Below, in pieces: positions 12,165-32,004 of a stretch of DNA of 32,526 bases. The notes beneath the pieces are model-generated. The model did no database searches and was not told the origin of the DNA. It saw only the letters and a program-made list of their open reading frames with translations. The position numbers and the translations under genes were made by a program. This DNA comes from Thiobacillus denitrificans (GTDB lineage: Bacteria > Pseudomonadota > Gammaproteobacteria > Burkholderiales > Thiobacillaceae). The stretch spans positions 1-32,526 of the forward strand of contig DYFW01000021.1 in NCBI GenBank assembly GCA_020725005.1, given 5' to 3'. How positions within the stretch are numbered: position 1 is the stretch's first letter; each line of letters begins with the position of its first letter.

Positions 12165-14429
12165 TTACGCCACCACAGACTTGTCGAAGGCGCGGTGGTC
12201 GGTCACGTTGCCGCCATACACATGACGGATTTTGTAGGTGACCTGGTCGTTGCTGAACAGCGAGCCGGCGTTGGGCAGATCCTGGATGAACAGCTCCGGC
12301 TCTTCGTTGCCGTCCAGGAAGCCGATTTCCAGGCCCGGAATGTCCAGCGGATCGGCGGCGAGCGCCCAATCGTTGGCATCGGTCCAATACCAGACCGGCA
12401 ACACCTCCAGCGACAGGCTATTGATGAACGACTTGTCGTTGTTGGTGTTGCGCGCGAACAGGTCGACGCCGGTCTGCTCCAGATCGTTCGGCACGATCAG
12501 GTATTTCGGGCCGATACCCAGGCGCTCGCCCGAGGTCAGCTCGGTCTGGTTCAGCATCGCCAGGCGGCGCGCGGCCAGGCTGGTGGCGTCCAGGGCGGCG
12601 GCACCCAGGTTGCCGTGGCCGACGGTGAACAGCGCGGTGCCGTCGTAAATGTTCGGGTTGGTACGGATGAAGTCGAACACGAACTTGCCCAGGGTGCGCT
12701 TGGCGGCGCGCGAAAGCTTGGTCGGGATCAGACGAATGGCGCCGACGTCGTCGTTCTTGATCGCCTCCAGGGAGACGGTCTCCAGTCCGCCGCGCTTGGT
12801 TACCGCGTAGCTCGCCTTCTCGTCGTCCGGCGAGGTCACCGCCAAGTAAGCACCCTTCTCGGCCACAGCGGCGAGATCGCCATAGCCGCCGACACGGGTG
12901 CGTTCCTGGGAACGGAAGTCATTGACCGGCACCACGTTGACGATCTTGCGCCACATGTCATAGACGGACGGCGCCCGGTAGTCGGCCAGCATGCGGCGGG
13001 TGATGGCCAGGCCCAGCACGTCGCCGAACTGGGTGGTGTCGATGGCCTCACGCAGCCGCGCCTGGTCGCAGTCCTTCAGGTGGCCGGTGACGCGCTTGTC
13101 GCCGGTGATGTCGATGTAGCATTCGCGGAACGACGACAGCTTGCCGCCGAAGAAGTCGTCCAGCATCGCGCCCACCTTCTCGCGGCGATCCTCTCCGGCC
13201 TGGACGCGGCCTTCGCCGCCCAGCTCGACCGGCTTGCCGGACTCGGTGAAACGTGCCAGGTAGTCGCGCTCGGCGGTGATGGCGGCGGCAACGTTCGCCT
13301 CGGTGAAACGCTCCATGCCGTCGAACTGCTTGCGCAGTTTCTGCTTGGCCACGTCGGGCAGGTTGCTCTCGGCGATCAGCACACGCATCTCGGCGCGGGC
13401 CTCGATCATGCGCAGGTCATCGCGGGTGACGACGTCACCGGCGGCGGGCTCTCCCTTCGCCGGCGGCACCTCGCATCCGCTCTCGTCGCTCGCAATGGCC
13501 TCGCGGAACGCTGCCTCCAGCGCCTCATCGTTCTCGATATTGAGCCCGGCAGGCAGGCTCCCCTTGTTGGCCTTCTTGATGGCCTCGATCATGCGGTCGC
13601 GCAGTTTCATGTCTGCTTGTGCCTCCGGGTTGATTGCTTCGATGAGTTGGATCAGTTCGCCGCCGGCGCCCGGCTCGATGATCAGATCGAGCGAATGCAC
13701 CTTGGTGAACTTGACGGCCTCGCGCAGACGGCCGTTCTTCTTGCTCTGTGCGTTGGCGTCGATGGAAAAACCGAACAGGTCGGCCATGCCGCGGTTCCAC
13801 GCCTCCAGCAGCTTGGTGTGGACGCCGGCCGACTCCAGCAACTCCAGGGTGGCCTGGATCTCGCCGGTGTCGCGCTTCGCGCCCTCGACGAAGCGGGGAG
13901 CGGAGAGGCGGCCGATGAGGTTGCGGAAATCCTTGCCCTCGGTGTTGAGGTGTTCTGCGTCCGATTTGACGAACACGCGCGCACCGTCGAACAGCGGAAC
14001 GGCTTCGCGCAGCGCGGTGTCGGGGTAGTAGTTGTTGTTGCCCGAGGCGCCCGCCTTGATGACGCGCACCTGCCACTTCAGGCCCTGGGTGTCGGCGGTG
14101 GCCTCCAGGAACGCGCCCTGAGCCTCCTGCATCGGTACTGCACCGGATGCAACGGGCTTGAACTCGCGCGTCACCTCCACGGCAGCACCGAGCTGCACCT
14201 GGTTGTCATCGGTGATGGTGTAGGGATAGGACAGCAGGCGTGCGTCACGGGACACGATGGCGCGGTCGGCGAACATGGCCTCGACGCTCACCCAGCAGTC
14301 CGCCCGCGTGCCGCACAGATGCACCTGGAGCGCACGGCGGACCAGCTCGACCAGGTCGCGCAGTTCGCTGGTGGCCTCGCGGAACGCCTGCTCGCCGACC
14401 AGGCCGCCTTTCGGGATGCGGACGGCCAT
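12165..14429 (-). CDS. Head maturation protease fused to major capsid protein
   Basis: 754 residues with three regions. Residues about 1-240 look like a prohead protease: the FVKSDAEHLN and DLFGFSIDA segments give candidate catalytic His160 and Ser222, as in S78-type proteases. Residues about 240-450 are helical and charged, like a scaffold (delta) domain. Residues about 470-754 (APSVYDMWRKIVNVVPVNDFRSQERTRVGGYGDLAAVAEKG... to FDFIRTNPNIYDGTALFTVGHGN...LIVPNDLEQTGVDLF) are a capsid subunit of the Mu gpT-like/HK97-fold type. In Mu, protease, scaffold and capsid come from separate or nested genes. The frame is uninterrupted here, so self-cleavage should release the capsid part (inference). Confidence 0.85.
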   Translation of the reverse strand: MAVRIPKGGLVGEQAFREATSELRDLVELVRRALQVHLCGTRADCWVSVEAMFADRAIVSRDARLLSYPYTITDDNQVQLGAAVEVTREFKPVASGAVPMQEAQGAFLEATADTQGLKWQVRVIKAGASGNNNYYPDTALREAVPLFDGARVFVKSDAEHLNTEGKDFRNLIGRLSAPRFVEGAKRDTGEIQATLELLESAGVHTKLLEAWNRGMADLFGFSIDANAQSKKNGRLREAVKFTKVHSLDLIIEPGAGGELIQLIEAINPEAQADMKLRDRMIEAIKKANKGSLPAGLNIENDEALEAAFREAIASDESGCEVPPAKGEPAAGDVVTRDDLRMIEARAEMRVLIAESNLPDVAKQKLRKQFDGMERFTEANVAAAITAERDYLARFTESGKPVELGGEGRVQAGEDRREKVGAMLDDFFGGKLSSFRECYIDITGDKRVTGHLKDCDQARLREAIDTTQFGDVLGLAITRRMLADYRAPSVYDMWRKIVNVVPVNDFRSQERTRVGGYGDLAAVAEKGAYLAVTSPDDEKASYAVTKRGGLETVSLEAIKNDDVGAIRLIPTKLSRAAKRTLGKFVFDFIRTNPNIYDGTALFTVGHGNLGAAALDATSLAARRLAMLNQTELTSGERLGIGPKYLIVPNDLEQTGVDLFARNTNNDKSFINSLSLEVLPVWYWTDANDWALAADPLDIPGLEIGFLDGNEEPELFIQDLPNAGSLFSNDQVTYKIRHVYGGNVTDHRAFDKSVVA

Positions 14430-16598: not shown

Positions 16599-16618
16599 CT
16601 TTATAAAGCTTTATAAAG
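16599..16618. repeat. Tandem palindrome CTTTATAAAG x2
   Basis: CTTTATAAAG is repeated twice head to tail. Each copy and the whole 20 bp are perfect palindromes. It is a rare A/T island in the 118-bp non-coding gap just upstream of the gpF-like gene. It could be a protein-binding site or a promoter element. Nothing else is evident in the gap. Confidence 0.5.
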
Positions 16619-20491: not shown

Positions 20492-20917
20492 TCATTTGCC
20501 TCCGTTTGCGAGCGCCTGTTCCAGTCGCTCAGAGAGTCGTCCCATCGCCGTATTCAGGGCCACGAGGCGTTCGCCGTCGCGATCCTGCTTGGCCTCGATC
20601 ACCGCCGAGAACCTGATCCAGTCCTCGCGGCGCACGTACTGCAACGGCAGCTCAGCGCGCAGCGCGAGGAGGTCTTTTTCCAACTTTGCAACCGTCTGCG
20701 TCTCGGCGTTAAGGGCCAATTTCAGCCCGCCGAACAGCGCGTCCCAATGCTTCTGCGCCTCGGCCCGCGCCGCCTCCTGCGCCTCGAAGCGCTGATCGAG
20801 GCTGCGCTGCATCTGGGCCAGCAGCAGCTTCCCCGCGCCGAAAACGAAACCCAGAAACGACAACAGCAGCCCCACCAGGAACAGCAGCAACTGCCAAAAT
20901 TCCACCTGCACCTGCAT
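20492..20917 (-). CDS. DUF2730 membrane protein (Mu gp25-like)
   Basis: 141 residues from the ATG at 20917, which overlaps the preceding stop (TGATG). A GTG one codon earlier (20920) is also possible. One N-terminal membrane helix (FWQLLLFLVGLLLSFLGFVFGAGKLL), then a charged coiled-coil region (LAQMQRSLDQRFEAQEAARAEAQKHWDALFG...QTVAKLEKDL). This is the DUF2730 layout found just before the packaging genes of Mu-like phages. Function unknown. Confidence 0.83.
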   Translation of the reverse strand: MQVQVEFWQLLLFLVGLLLSFLGFVFGAGKLLLAQMQRSLDQRFEAQEAARAEAQKHWDALFGGLKLALNAETQTVAKLEKDLLALRAELPLQYVRREDWIRFSAVIEAKQDRDGERLVALNTAMGRLSERLEQALANGGK

Positions 20918-21393
20918 CACTCCGCCCCCTTCAAATGCGCCGGCTCCGGCGCATTTGCGCCCTCATGAGTGGACCAGCACAGCGCCTCCAGCTCCTCCGC
21001 GTACTGCCGCCGCAGCGTCTCGCGCCACACCAGGCGCGCATGCGCCTCCGGCGTCATGCAGTCCAGTTCCTCGGCGCTCACCGTGGGCAGCTCCGGCCGC
21101 GCCGGGCAGTCCAGCGGCAAGCTCACGTAGCGCACCTCCGGCGCCGCGCAGCCGGCCAGCAGGGCCGCCAGCAGCAGGGTCAAAACGGCCAACGTTGGCC
21201 GTTTTGCCACCGGCGCGCCCCGTCCAAATGCGTCGCTAGCGACGCATTTGGTGGCCCCCAAAACGGCCGTTAACGGCCGTTTTGCCGGCGACTCGCCCCA
21301 GCCAAATGCGCCAACGTTGGCGCATTTGCCCCCCGGCGCCGTGGCCCCCAAATGCGCCAACGTTGGCGCATTTGCCCGTGACCGGCTCACCAT
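20917..21393 (-). CDS. Rz1-like outer-membrane spanin with in-frame palindrome insertions
   Basis: 158 residues from the ATG at 21393, which has a strong ribosome-binding site (GGAGGGGAA) and overlaps the Rz gene, as Rz1 genes do. The signal sequence is split: basic MVSRSR at 1-6, then about 60 residues encoded by five palindromic repeats (ANAPTLAHLG, KCANVGAFG, AKRPLTAVLG, KCVASDAFG, AKRPTLAVL), then the hydrophobic core and lipobox LTLLLAALLAGC with the Cys at 82. The mature part (AAPEVRYVSLPLDCPARPELP...) is Rz1-like. A sixth palindrome codes ANAPEPAHL near the C-terminus. Rz1 and Rz join outer and inner membranes in the last lysis step. Whether the stretched signal works is open; an unseen internal start could bypass it. 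Confidence 0.72.
   Translation of the reverse strand: MVSRSRANAPTLAHLGATAPGGKCANVGAFGWGESPAKRPLTAVLGATKCVASDAFGRGAPVAKRPTLAVLTLLLAALLAGCAAPEVRYVSLPLDCPARPELPTVSAEELDCMTPEAHARLVWRETLRRQYAEELEALCWSTHEGANAPEPAHLKGAE
20932..20957. repeat. 26-bp palindrome, isolated copy
   Basis: CAAATGCGCCGG and its complement flank a central CT. It belongs to the CAAATGCG...CGCATTTG type seen in the array at 21.2-21.4 kb. It lies 15 bp before the end of the Rz1-like gene, in frame, and codes ANAPEPAHL. Confidence 0.85.
21181..21374. repeat. Array of five 26-28-bp perfect palindromes
   Basis: Copies at 21181-21206, 21224-21251, 21259-21284, 21303-21328 and 21349-21374, all perfect palindromes without loops. Two arm types alternate: CAAAACGG...CCGTTTTG (copies 1, 3) and CAAATGCG...CGCATTTG (copies 2, 4, 5). 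The cores differ (CCAACGTTGG, TCGCTAGCGA, CCGTTAACGG, CCAACGTTGG). Spacers are 7-20 bp and rich in GGCCCC. All lie in frame in the Rz1-like gene, in two different phases. Confidence 0.95.
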
Positions 21394-21653
21394 TTCCCCT
21401 CCAGCTGATCCCGCCGCCCCTCGCTCAAACCGGCCTCGATCTCGGCCCGCTCCTCGGCGTGCTGCCGCTGCGTCTCCCGTCTGGCATCGTCCGCCCGCTG
21501 CCGCGCCGCCTGGCCGGCCTCGGCCACCTGCGCCCGCAACCGGTCGCGCTCCGCCTCCGCCTGGCGCCGCTGCGCACCCGAGCGGAACCACGCGGCCAGG
21601 AACAGGCCCAGCGCCGCCAGCGCGGCCAGCGCCTTACTCCAGAGGCTGCGCAC
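21387..21653 (-). CDS. Rz-like inner-membrane spanin
   Basis: 88 residues from a GTG. A short N-terminus and one membrane helix (ALAALAALGLFLAAWF, residues 8-23) are followed by a periplasmic charged coiled coil (QRRQAEAERDRLRAQVAEAGQAARQR... then ETQRQHAEERAEIEAG). This is the i-spanin architecture. It overlaps the holin-like gene at the start by 20 bp and the Rz1-like gene at the end by 7 bp. It would act with the outer-membrane partner to fuse the membranes at lysis. Confidence 0.8.
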   Translation of the reverse strand: MRSLWSKALAALAALGLFLAAWFRSGAQRRQAEAERDRLRAQVAEAGQAARQRADDARRETQRQHAEERAEIEAGLSEGRRDQLEGKW

Positions 21654-24578: not shown

Positions 24579-25493
24579 ATGCCCCGCAAGAAAGCCACAC
24601 CGGCCACGCCCGCCATCGAAGCCGAAGGCGTCAACGTCGAGGCCATCAATAAGGCCGTCGCCGAGGCCGACGCGAACGCCAAGCGCCTGAGCGTCATCGA
24701 CGCCCAGTTCAGCGACAACCTGCCCTACGACAAGGTGCGTATCGAGAACGAGGCGCGGTTCTTTTTGACCGAGTCGGCCGGCGCCCTGCTGGAGGCCGGC
24801 AAACGCCTCATCCTGCTCAAGGAGCACGAGGTGCATGGTGAATTCATCGCCGCGCTGGAGCGCATCGGCATCGCGCCCCGTGCCGCCCAGAAGATGATGC
24901 AGGCCGCTCTGAAGTTCTCCAGCAAGCCGCAGATCGCCGCGCTCGGCCGCTCGAAGCTGTTGGAGCTGATGGCGGAAGACGACGAGACGCTTGAGGCACT
25001 GGAGGAAGGCGGCACCATCGCCGGCCTTGCCATCGACGAACTTGATCGTATGTCGGTCCGCGAACTGAAGGACGCCCTGCACAAAGCACGCGACAAGAAC
25101 CAGCACGACGCCGAGGTGCACGAAAAGTTGATCGCGCAGAAGGACCGCAAGATCAACGAACTCCACAAAAAGGTGCACGAGCGCGAGAAGCGCACCAAGG
25201 AATGGCCGTTCCGCGTCCGCGAAATCCAGATCGAGACCACGGAGCTGGGCGCGGCGATGCTGGAGGAGGCCGACCGTCTCGATGTGCTGCGCGATGCCAT
25301 CCTCACCGAGCAGTTCGGCGAGGAGGAACACGAGCCGGCCAACGAGGCGATGGCGGTGGTCTATTACGACACGCTCACCCAGGTGATGAACCGCGTCATC
25401 GACCTGTGGCAGGCCTGCGATGAAGTGTTCTCCGGCTACAAGGCGAAGGCCCGGCCGATGCTGGACGTGCAGCTCCCCGAGGCCGGCGAATAA
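24579..25493 (+). CDS. DUF3102-like early protein
   Basis: 304 residues. Residues about 55-115 (ENEARFFLTESAGALLEAGKRLILLKEHEVHGEFIAALERIGIAPRAAQKMMQAALKF) carry the DUF3102 pattern: LxEAGxxLLxLKE followed by a short helix-turn-helix. Then comes a long charged coiled coil (LHKARDKNQHDAEVHEKLIAQKDRKINELHKKVHEREKRTKE) and a helical C-terminus. Proteins like this often stand just before the transposase in BcepMu-type phages and have been suggested to bind DNA, but the function is not established. The gene ends 12 bp before the transposase. Confidence 0.78.
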   Translation: MPRKKATPATPAIEAEGVNVEAINKAVAEADANAKRLSVIDAQFSDNLPYDKVRIENEARFFLTESAGALLEAGKRLILLKEHEVHGEFIAALERIGIAPRAAQKMMQAALKFSSKPQIAALGRSKLLELMAEDDETLEALEEGGTIAGLAIDELDRMSVRELKDALHKARDKNQHDAEVHEKLIAQKDRKINELHKKVHEREKRTKEWPFRVREIQIETTELGAAMLEEADRLDVLRDAILTEQFGEEEHEPANEAMAVVYYDTLTQVMNRVIDLWQACDEVFSGYKAKARPMLDVQLPEAGE

Positions 25494-31494: not shown

Positions 31495-32004
31495 GTGGAA
31501 ACCCCACGACAGAAAGACCAACGGTACCGGCTTTATACCCTGCTGAATGTCGGTCGCTCCAAGCTCGGCATGCAGGACGAGGACTACCGCGCCCTCCTGG
31601 CCCGCCACGGCGCCAAGGAGCGCGACGGCCAGGTGTCGGCCACCACCCTCGACCTGCTCGGTCTGGAGCGTGTCCTGGAGGAACTCAAGAAGAAGGGGTT
31701 CAAGCCGATAGCCAAGAACCAGACGCGCCGACGTCGGCGCGTCCCGTCAGCAGGGCACGCCACAACGGAACAGATCGACCTCATGAAATATATCTGGAGC
31801 GCGCTTGGCCAGGCTGACATCCTGCGGGACAAGACCGAGCGCGGCCTGTTGGCCTGGGTAAGGGTTTCCACTCGCCGGGAAACTGGTACCAGCACCGGCT
31901 ACGAGGCCCTGGAGTTCCTCCCCACCGAGATCGCCCAGCACCTGATCGAGCGCCTCAAGAAGTGGGCCGCTCGCAGCGACGTGGAGCTGGCCCTGCATGG
32001 CTGA
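31495..32004 (+). CDS. gemA: GemA-type regulatory protein (Mu gp16-like)
   Basis: 169 residues from GTG 31495, chosen because GGAGGTGA stands 5 bases upstream; a GTG at 31486 overlaps that site. It reads YRLYTLLNVGRSKLGMQDEDYRALLARHGAKERDGQ... LDLLGLERVLEELKKKGFKP, the DUF1018/GemA hallmark (LGMdDEdYRalL...). A C-terminal helical half (QIDLMKYIWSALGQADI) follows. In Mu, GemA alters host gene expression and DNA supercoiling and is co-expressed with mor. The same gemA-mor order is kept here, with 8 bp overlap. Confidence 0.9.
   Translation: METPRQKDQRYRLYTLLNVGRSKLGMQDEDYRALLARHGAKERDGQVSATTLDLLGLERVLEELKKKGFKPIAKNQTRRRRRVPSAGHATTEQIDLMKYIWSALGQADILRDKTERGLLAWVRVSTRRETGTSTGYEALEFLPTEIAQHLIERLKKWAARSDVELALHG

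What the first reader, a model, noticed from the sequence alone, without database searches (positions are those of the whole stretch)
21181..21374. Five perfect palindromes inserted in frame in the Rz1-like spanin gene
Five 26-28-bp loop-free palindromes with two arm types (CAAATGCG and CAAAACGG) and different cores stand at 34-46-bp centre spacing. They lie between the basic MVSRSR start (strong ribosome-binding site) and the hydrophobic signal core and lipobox, pushing the lipobox Cys to residue 82. They are translated in two phases into ANAPTLAHL, KCANVGAF, AKRPLTAVL, KCVASDAF and AKRPTLAVL, without a stop. This looks like a family of small mobile or self-amplifying palindromic elements that tolerate coding regions, comparable in concept to Rickettsia palindromic elements but shorter and with another sequence. 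Shared arms with variable cores suggest spread by copying rather than simple tandem slippage.
Basis: partly seen in the sequence, partly recalled or inferred. Interest (0 to 1): 0.88.

Follow-up and report, generated by a model that had tools for sequence, protein, structure and literature searches.

The report
Relocated DNA-binding sites of phage protein
The perfect palindromes in this virus's lysis gene look like DNA landing sites for a little-studied phage protein (DUF3102), whose relatives often carry such a site inside their own gene, with the protein's reading helix and the site changing together in a nearly one-to-one code.

Summary
In detail: five perfect 26-28-bp palindromes lie in the Rz1-like gene of a Mu/B3-like prophage; a sixth, missed one lies near the gene's 3' end. 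They are not a host repeat. Palindromes of this kind (26 bp, CAAA...TTTG ends, variable interior) sit inside the phage gene DUF3102 in 102 of 145 genes collected by protein similarity. In 42 of 65 non-redundant genes 12-13 of 13 pairs match, at one site after the recognition helix; synonymous reshuffling reaches that in 0.05% of trials. For in-gene sites the helix residue predicts the base: Gln-C, Arg-G, Val/Ala/His/Ser-T in 126 of 126 distinct cases with these residues (131 cases in all). In B3-like phages helix and site form a divergent island inside near-identical DNA. Phages without the in-gene palindrome, such as this one, more often have one elsewhere (8 of 14 against 3 of 37). Best reading: the palindromes are binding sites of the phage's own DUF3102 protein, lost from the gene and multiplied in Rz1. 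Four of six fit this phage's reader (Gln); two (CAAAACGG) have the Arg-type base of other phages' proteins. Binding, and what it does, are inferred. No functional study of DUF3102 was found in the library searched.

The parts
21181..21206 (.). palindrome, B type: CAAAACGG CCAACGTTGG CCGTTTTG (base 7 = G, the type found with Arg-type DUF3102 proteins)
   Evidence: same 26-mer inside the DUF3102 gene of L177
21224..21251 (.). palindrome, A type: (C)CAAATGCG TCGCTAGCGA CGCATTTG(G) (base 7 = C, the type found with Gln-type DUF3102 proteins)
   Evidence: in viral contigs this exact 26-mer was found only in the near-identical phage L093
21259..21284 (.). palindrome, B type: CAAAACGG CCGTTAACGG CCGTTTTG
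21303..21328 (.). palindrome, A type: CAAATGCG CCAACGTTGG CGCATTTG
   Evidence: same 26-mer inside the DUF3102 gene of L103
21349..21374 (.). palindrome, A type: CAAATGCG CCAACGTTGG CGCATTTG (identical to 21303-21328)
20932..20957 (.). sixth palindrome, A type, one mismatched central pair: CAAATGCG CCGGCTCCGG CGCATTTG, near the 3' end of Rz1
   Evidence: also in the relative G478 (L059/L388) with its asymmetric centre reversed relative to the gene
20917..21393 (-). Rz1-like (outer-membrane spanin) gene, with the array between its start and its signal core/lipobox
   Evidence: relative with a single N-terminal palindrome: VVSGRKCAGAGAFVLLLAALLAGC...
21387..21653 (-). Rz-like (inner-membrane) spanin gene, overlapping the start of Rz1
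   Evidence: PHROG Rz-like spanin, E 1.8e-5
24579..25493 (+). DUF3102-type gene (phrog_1748): proposed reader of the palindromes; directly before the large ORF in the transposase position
   Evidence: phrog_1748 E 6.9e-62; B3 homologue annotated DUF3102; PF11300 in 48 of 49 aligned members, though not in the window protein itself at E 0.01
24888..24893 (+). codons of the two code residues in the predicted recognition helix: Gln104 (X) and Lys105 (Y), in GIAPRAAQKMMQ
24919..24944 (+). home position of the palindrome inside DUF3102: degenerate here (reads SSKPQIAAL, no palindrome)
   Evidence: also degenerate in the relative G478 (SGKPQVAAL)

Best explanation
The palindromes are dyad-symmetric DNA-binding sites of the phage's own DUF3102 protein. 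This protein has a predicted helix-turn-helix domain (weakly ParB-like in fold) followed by a long coiled coil, and is encoded just before the transposition genes. In many phages of this kind one site is written inside the DUF3102 gene itself, in the codons after those of the recognition helix, so reader and site form one cassette that diversifies as a unit. In this phage and its closest relative the in-gene site is degenerate and sites are found in the Rz1 gene instead: one at the N-terminal end plus one at the 3' end in the relative, five plus one here. SHOWN by computation: position, symmetry beyond codon choice, covariation of helix and site, complementarity between in-gene and other sites, a recent change in copy number in Rz1 (gain here or loss in the relative). 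INFERRED: physical binding by DUF3102. INFERRED, less sure: bound protein acts as a transcription roadblock or repressor (of its own transposition operon where the site is in the gene; of the lysis/head operon here), and the hypervariability reflects competition between phages of the same specificity (immunity or incompatibility).
For: (1) 102 of 145 DUF3102 genes collected by protein similarity hold a 26-bp CAAA-type palindrome with at most 1 of 13 pairs mismatched inside the gene. In 65 non-redundant genes 42 reach 12-13 pairs, all 42 in the stretch just before the G[KR][ST]KL-like motif, against 0.05% of 13,000 synonymous reshuffles. (2) In 48 of these 65 chosen for at least 10 matched pairs, symmetry includes pair 12 next to the centre (45 of 48; shuffle mean 17.6), and mismatches are not G-T biased (5 GT, 7 AC, 8 AG): a DNA dyad rather than an RNA hairpin. 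(3) Recognition-helix residue X against site base 7 in 131 distinct combinations: Q-C 80/80, R-G 31/31, V/A/H/S-T 15/15; the other five: T-G 2, N-C 1, N-T 1, D-C 1. Residue Y=R goes with base 10=C in 68/69 and Y=L/V with A in 20/20; Y=K is undecided (A 11, C 12). Mutual information is 1.28 bits against 0.09 shuffled. The set collected without reference to the palindrome gives 58 of 58 for coded residues plus one N-C. (4) Close-backbone pairs: X same/base 7 same 132, same/different 0, different/same 3, both different 167; 7 of 26 backbone clusters hold two or more specificities. (5) In B3-like phages the helix-plus-site stretch is a divergent island in near-identical flanks. (6) Phages without the in-gene site more often have one elsewhere: 8 of 14 against 3 of 37, p=0.0005. 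Out-of-gene sites in such phages obey the code in 18 of 24, permutation p=0.0045. (7) The window's DUF3102 has X=Q; its four CAAATGCG sites fit.
Against: Two of the six window sites (CAAAACGG) are of the Arg type and do not fit the window's Gln reader; no second DUF3102 was found in the host genome. Out-of-gene sites in phages that also have an in-gene site fit the code in only 5 of 10. Sites of different arm type in one phage are each perfectly symmetric, which one fixed specificity does not explain. 20 of 145 loci have neither an in-gene nor another site at the loosest threshold, and over all 145 loci only 11 of 31 without an in-gene site show one in the flanks held. Of six further phage genes looked at, one has 12 matched pairs, two 11, one 10 and two none; of 13 loci from the host's order four have 11-12 pairs at the home site. 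14 of 27 tested records with out-of-gene palindromes had no DUF3102, many being fragments; nor did the 6.9-kb record of L093. Fold similarity to ParB is weak (Foldseek E above 1; the top hit is Raf1). No binding experiment exists.
Confidence: 0.82

Rival explanations
1. A selfish, mobile palindromic element (concept of Rickettsia palindromic elements) that copies itself into phage genes; DUF3102 is merely its favoured home.
For: The same 24-bp palindrome core at three places in Microcystis phage Mae-JY22, one in DUF3102 and two in frame behind the apparent signal peptide of another gene; one N-terminal palindrome against five in close relatives; copies in linkers and intergenic DNA.
Against: Does not explain the code between the DUF3102 recognition helix and the site, the fixed position from streptococcal to proteobacterial phages, or in-gene/out-of-gene complementarity. 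No copies elsewhere in the host genome.
Confidence: 0.08
2. RNA hairpins (intrinsic terminators, attenuators or processing sites) kept by selection on RNA folding.
For: Perfect GC-rich inverted repeats with A/T ends can fold as hairpins; some out-of-gene copies lie just upstream of genes.
Against: Symmetry reaches the pair next to the centre, which an RNA hairpin loop would leave unpaired; no excess of G-U over A-C mismatches; no Rfam match in 13 sources at gathering score; RNA folding does not predict covariation with a protein helix.
Confidence: 0.05
3. Functionless quasi-palindromes made perfect by template-switch or hairpin repair.
For: Would explain why sites of different sequence in one phage are each perfectly symmetric (inference; not tested).
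Against: Does not explain conserved position, fixed 26-bp size with CAAA ends, the helix code, or symmetry inside the loop region. It may act in addition to selection.
Confidence: 0.03
4. The array is a centromere-like (sopC/parS-like) partition or incompatibility site for a ParB-like DUF3102 protein, not a gene-regulatory operator.
For: Weak fold matches to SopB, Spo0J, P1 ParB and Noc; array spacing of 44, 34, 44 and 46 bp recalls the tandem sopC repeats (recalled, not from a call).
Against: No ParA in the window proteins scanned (not all proteins were scanned); transposable phages integrate and should need no partition (general knowledge); five of the six named phage records scanned show no dispersed copy, only the site in the gene.
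Confidence: 0.12

Closest known systems
ParB/KorB/SopB-type DNA-binding proteins and their palindromic sites (parS, O_B, sopC; site names recalled)
   Same: Helix-turn-helix protein with dyad-symmetric sites, sites dispersed or clustered, specificity set by the recognition helix; weak fold similarity
DUF3102 (PF11300) / phrog_1748
   Same: The window gene belongs here by phrog_1748 and by its homologues' PF11300 matches
   Different: No function is recorded in Pfam or PHROGs; the three papers that hold the name are about other subjects, judged from titles and starts of abstracts
Rickettsia palindromic elements (RPE; features recalled)
   Same: Palindromes carried in frame inside protein-coding genes
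   Different: No copies elsewhere in the host genome, shorter, phage-borne, sequence tied to a DNA-binding protein
Phage repressor-operator immunity systems
   Same: Reader and sites covary and differ between otherwise similar phages

Membership tests
Binding sites of DUF3102 (proposed) | 26-bp dyad with CAAA...TTTG ends | tested here: met
   all six window copies
Binding sites of DUF3102 (proposed) | the same phage encodes DUF3102 | tested here: met
   24579-25493
Binding sites of DUF3102 (proposed) | site base 7 matches helix residue X of the phage's own reader | tested here: inconclusive
   X=Q: met by 4 of 6 window sites, not by the two CAAAACGG sites
Binding sites of DUF3102 (proposed) | physical binding | not testable with these tools
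   needs gel shift or DAP-seq
ParB/parS partition system | ParB-type DNA-binding fold | tested here: inconclusive
   ParB chains recur in Foldseek but with E above 1
ParB/parS partition system | ParA partner gene | tested here: inconclusive
   none among the window proteins scanned; the B-like protein matches AAA_22; not all window proteins were scanned
Rickettsia palindromic element | many copies across the host genome | tested here: not met
   only the window copies of both arm types in the host genome; CAAATGCG type in 0 of 55 other genomes of the genus
REP/BIME | extragenic repeats of the host chromosome | tested here: not met
   window copies lie in coding sequence
DUF3102 | profile match | tested here: met
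   phrog_1748 E 6.9e-62; PF11300 in 48 of 49 aligned members, but not in the window protein itself at E 0.01
Rz1-like outer-membrane spanin | lipobox lipoprotein gene overlapping the Rz gene | tested here: met
   LLAGC at residue 82, overlap 21387-21393; no spanin profile matched the protein itself, only phrog_19655 of unknown function at E 0.0024; lipidation not testable

The most novel reading that the evidence does not exclude
DUF3102 is a second, hypervariable self/non-self determinant of transposable phages. Its in-gene site lets a resident phage's DUF3102 block an incoming phage of the same specificity inside the transposition operon. Phages that drop the in-gene site escape this and carry sites elsewhere. 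The mixed array in Rz1 (own Gln-type sites plus foreign Arg-type sites, one of them identical to another phage's in-gene site) is a decoy or sensor library against rival phages.
Probability: 0.25. Interest if true: 0.95.

Novelty: new variant of a known kind. Interest (0 to 1): 0.87.

Why it matters
It gives an apparently unstudied phage protein family (DUF3102, here from streptococcal to proteobacterial phages) a function class, a DNA site and a residue-to-base code that simple binding assays can test. The arrangement is unusual: the site lies in the protein's own codons next to its recognition helix, so both change as one cassette. That is a natural system for protein-DNA co-evolution and perhaps an overlooked layer of phage-phage competition. 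It also explains an odd palindrome array in a spanin gene that looked like a mobile element.

Tried and rejected
RNA element: Rfam on the window and 12 loci gave no match at gathering score. Host REP/RPE-like repeat: rejected. Simple tandem slippage: spacers 1 and 3 share GGGGCCAC and spacers 2 and 4 are marginally alike (shuffle p 0.008 and 0.03; the other four spacer pairs 0.27-0.74), so some unit duplication is likely. But the relative G478 matches in 215 of 224 aligned columns of mature Rz1 and has one N-terminal palindrome with a different core, so point divergence after duplication is an unlikely source of the two arm types. A first glance at the window's own DUF3102 suggested a short hairpin there; the real bases show none. 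Literature searches (one search listed 20 of 1,271 papers) showed no description of these palindromes in what I saw. I read passages only of PMC5977238, PMC4378225 and PMC2628397, and otherwise only search listings and starts of abstracts.

Rows dropped or selected: one search kept the best 80 of 211 relatives, ranked by similarity to the B3-type protein, which may favour palindrome-bearing genes. 9 of 145 DUF3102 genes with in-frame stops in the matched stretch were left out, and the other 136 were reduced to 65 by similarity. One search used the 48 of 65 with at least 10 matched pairs at the site, so its pair rates are raised by selection. One search used 90 genes with a 12-13-pair site. One search used 131 distinct helix/site combinations from 305 DUF3102 rows, leaving out 93 rows without exactly one in-gene site; many of those loci had been found by the two palindrome patterns. 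One search counts 104 of 145 because its margin of 60 bases takes in two upstream sites (L259, L278); one search counts 102. One search tested 27 of the 30 loci with outside palindromes and no DUF3102 on the piece; L048 and L074 share contigs with tested or positive loci, and L093 was tested (no match).

Full report
OBSERVATION. A sixth, with one mismatched central pair, lies at 20932-20957 near the 3' end of the same Rz1-like gene. The window is a Mu/B3-like transposable prophage: Gam, GemA, a late transcriptional activator, an AAA ATPase next to a large ORF in the transposase position, terminase, portal and Rz-like spanin. Both arm patterns occur only in this window in the 3.26-Mb draft host genome; the CAAATGCG pattern is in none of 55 other genomes of the genus.

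WHERE ELSE. In viral contigs CAAATGCG-N10-CGCATTTG gave at least 120 stretches (capped) and CAAAACGG-N10-CCGTTTTG 70, against 8 for one scrambled-arm control. The pattern left the ten interior bases free, yet 110 of 128 matches have at most one mismatched pair of five there. Of the 120 loci, 66 hold the palindrome inside a DUF3102 reading frame, 42 outside one (3 both) and 15 have no site with at most one mismatch. Scans of six named phage records (B3, Ps59, Mae-JY22, PhiKM, phiSHP3, KP12; PhiKM and KP12 are partial) found a long palindrome inside the DUF3102 gene in all six. In five it is a full CAAA...TTTG palindrome; in phiSHP3 it is a shorter one.

THE HOME SITE. I then collected DUF3102 genes by a peptide motif outside the palindrome and tblastn: 80 loci from viral contigs (the best 80 of 211) and 65 from titled genome contigs. 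102 of 145 have a 26-bp CAAA-type palindrome, at most 1 of 13 pairs off, inside the gene (104 with a 60-base margin). Reshuffling synonymous codons in 65 non-redundant genes gives 12-13 pairs in 0.05% of 13,000 trials. 42 of the 65 real genes reach that, all in the stretch between the '..MMQA..KF'-like helix and the 'GKTKL'-like motif. A streptococcal phage has 12 of 13 pairs there, a streptococcal satellite and a Campylobacter phage 11, another streptococcal phage 10, and Pseudomonas phages Ps60 and Bise none. Of 13 DUF3102 loci from other genomes of the host's order, four have 11-12 pairs at that site. So in many lineages, not all, the palindrome is kept at DNA level within a coding gene while its sequence changes.

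WHAT KIND OF CONSTRAINT. In 48 of the 65 genes (those with at least 10 matched pairs) the two sides covary far beyond shuffling. This includes the pair next to the centre (45 of 48 against 17.6), which could not pair in an RNA hairpin; a two-base DNA loop cannot be fully excluded. Mismatches show no G-T excess. This is the signature of a two-fold DNA site.

An AlphaFold model of the window's DUF3102 (mean pLDDT 84) shows a helix-turn-helix-like helix pair and a long coiled coil. Foldseek lists SopB, Spo0J, P1 ParB, Noc and VirB chains, but with E above 1 and behind Raf1, so this is a lead only. The decisive evidence is covariation. Residue X of the recognition helix (Gln104 in the window; motif R-x-A-X-Y-MM) and base 7 of the in-gene site are locked: Q-C 80 of 80, R-G 31 of 31, V/A/H/S-T 15 of 15. 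The remaining five of 131 distinct combinations are T-G twice, N-C, N-T and D-C. Y=R goes with base 10=C in 68 of 69, and Y=L or V with A in 20 of 20; Y=K is split (A 11, C 12). Among the genes collected without reference to the palindrome, 58 of 59 distinct cases carry a coded residue and all 58 fit; the 59th is N-C. In 302 pairs with similar N- and C-terminal parts, X and base 7 are both the same in 132, X the same but base 7 different in 0, X different but base 7 the same in 3, both different in 167. Seven of 26 backbone clusters hold two or more specificities, so the switch happened repeatedly. The X codon lies outside the palindrome, so this is not an effect of the genetic code.

THE CASSETTE. 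In three B3-like phages (L140, L143, L147) nucleotides 240-480 of DUF3102 (helix plus site) show 63-86% identity. L140 and L147 are 93-100% identical from 1.4 kb before the gene start to 4.1 kb after it, but differ beyond, on the repressor side; L140 and L143 are 96-100% identical on the repressor side too, and up to 2.8 kb after the start. L140 and L142 show the same island (75-78%, last quarter 96%) plus another divergent stretch. In two more distant enteric pairs the dip is shallower. Over 302 close pairs the helix region differs by 1.7% when the site is identical and 42% when it differs, with 6% and 4% in the N- and C-terminal parts.

SITES OUTSIDE THE GENE. Loci without the in-gene palindrome have one elsewhere more often: 8 of 14 against 3 of 37 non-redundant loci with adequate flanks, p=0.0005; with the stricter in-gene threshold 8 of 17 against 3 of 34, p=0.003; over all 145 loci 11 of 31 against 4 of 114. 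In Neisseria-type phages sites lie just upstream of DUF3102, between the transposition genes and near the capsid genes. In phages without an in-gene site 18 of 24 distinct outside sites obey the code for the phage's own reader, permutation p=0.0045 over 17 phages. In phages that also have an in-gene site only 5 of 10 do. Of 27 records with outside palindromes that I tested, 13 hold DUF3102; among those of 33 kb or more it is 11 of 14.

THE WINDOW. Its DUF3102 has X=Q, Y=K and a degenerate home site. Its relative G478 (81% identical DUF3102) also lacks the home site and has two Rz1 palindromes, both CAAATGCG. There the N-terminal one forms part of a compact signal peptide (VVSGRKCAGAGAFVLLLAALLAGC). 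The mature Rz1 DNA of the two matches in 215 of 224 aligned columns, so the difference of one against five N-terminal palindromes is recent; whether gain here or loss there is not shown. A nearly identical phage (L093) has the whole array plus one extra A that would shift the frame, unless it is a sequencing error. The four CAAATGCG sites fit the Gln reader. The two CAAAACGG sites have the Arg-type base; one is identical to the in-gene site of L177, and no second DUF3102 was found in the host.

MECHANISM. Most likely the palindromes are operators of DUF3102. In B3-like phages a bound dimer inside its own gene would stand in the path of transcription into the transposition genes and limit them. 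In this phage the cluster stands in the lysis gene, ahead of terminase and head genes on the same strand, and may delay late transcription. The hypervariable cassette suggests frequency-dependent competition among phages of one specificity. These functional steps are inference; binding itself is strongly implied but untested.

NOVELTY. The searches named above showed me no paper on these palindromes, and the three papers that name DUF3102 are about other subjects by title and start of abstract. Operators and ParB-type sites are a known kind.

Noticed in passing
window 16599-16618; L388 about 16708: Perfect AT-rich palindrome CTTTATAAAGCTTTATAAAG in a 65% GC prophage, between the head morphogenesis gene and the portal gene; a matching palindrome is kept in the relative G478. 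A different class of site.
   Followed up: no
window 20932-20957; L059 3455-3480 and 3703-3728: The asymmetric two-base centre of the 3' palindrome is in opposite orientation relative to the gene in the window and in G478, as if the element had been flipped or replaced by an inverted copy.
   Followed up: partly
L136 8149-8730 (Microcystis phage Mae-JY22): A gene annotated hypothetical (nuclease-like with a signal peptide by eye) carries two copies of the phage's own DUF3102 palindrome core in frame (KRAAPPVL) right after the signal peptide, a parallel to the Rz1 array.
   Followed up: partly
L093 about 515: A phage nearly identical to the window has one extra A before the last palindrome, shifting the frame between MVSRSR and the lipobox; real or sequencing error unknown.
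   Followed up: partly
window 12165-14429: One 754-aa frame matches both head maturation protease and 'major head and protease' families, suggesting a protease-capsid fusion.
   Followed up: no
window 31722-31743: A 22-bp perfect palindrome GACGCGCCGACGTCGGCGCGTC inside the GemA-like gene, not of the CAAA type.
   Followed up: no
L299 1756, L297 1383: Rare helix residues that may extend the code: Lys with base 7 = G (site 11 of 13 pairs), Thr with G.
   Followed up: partly
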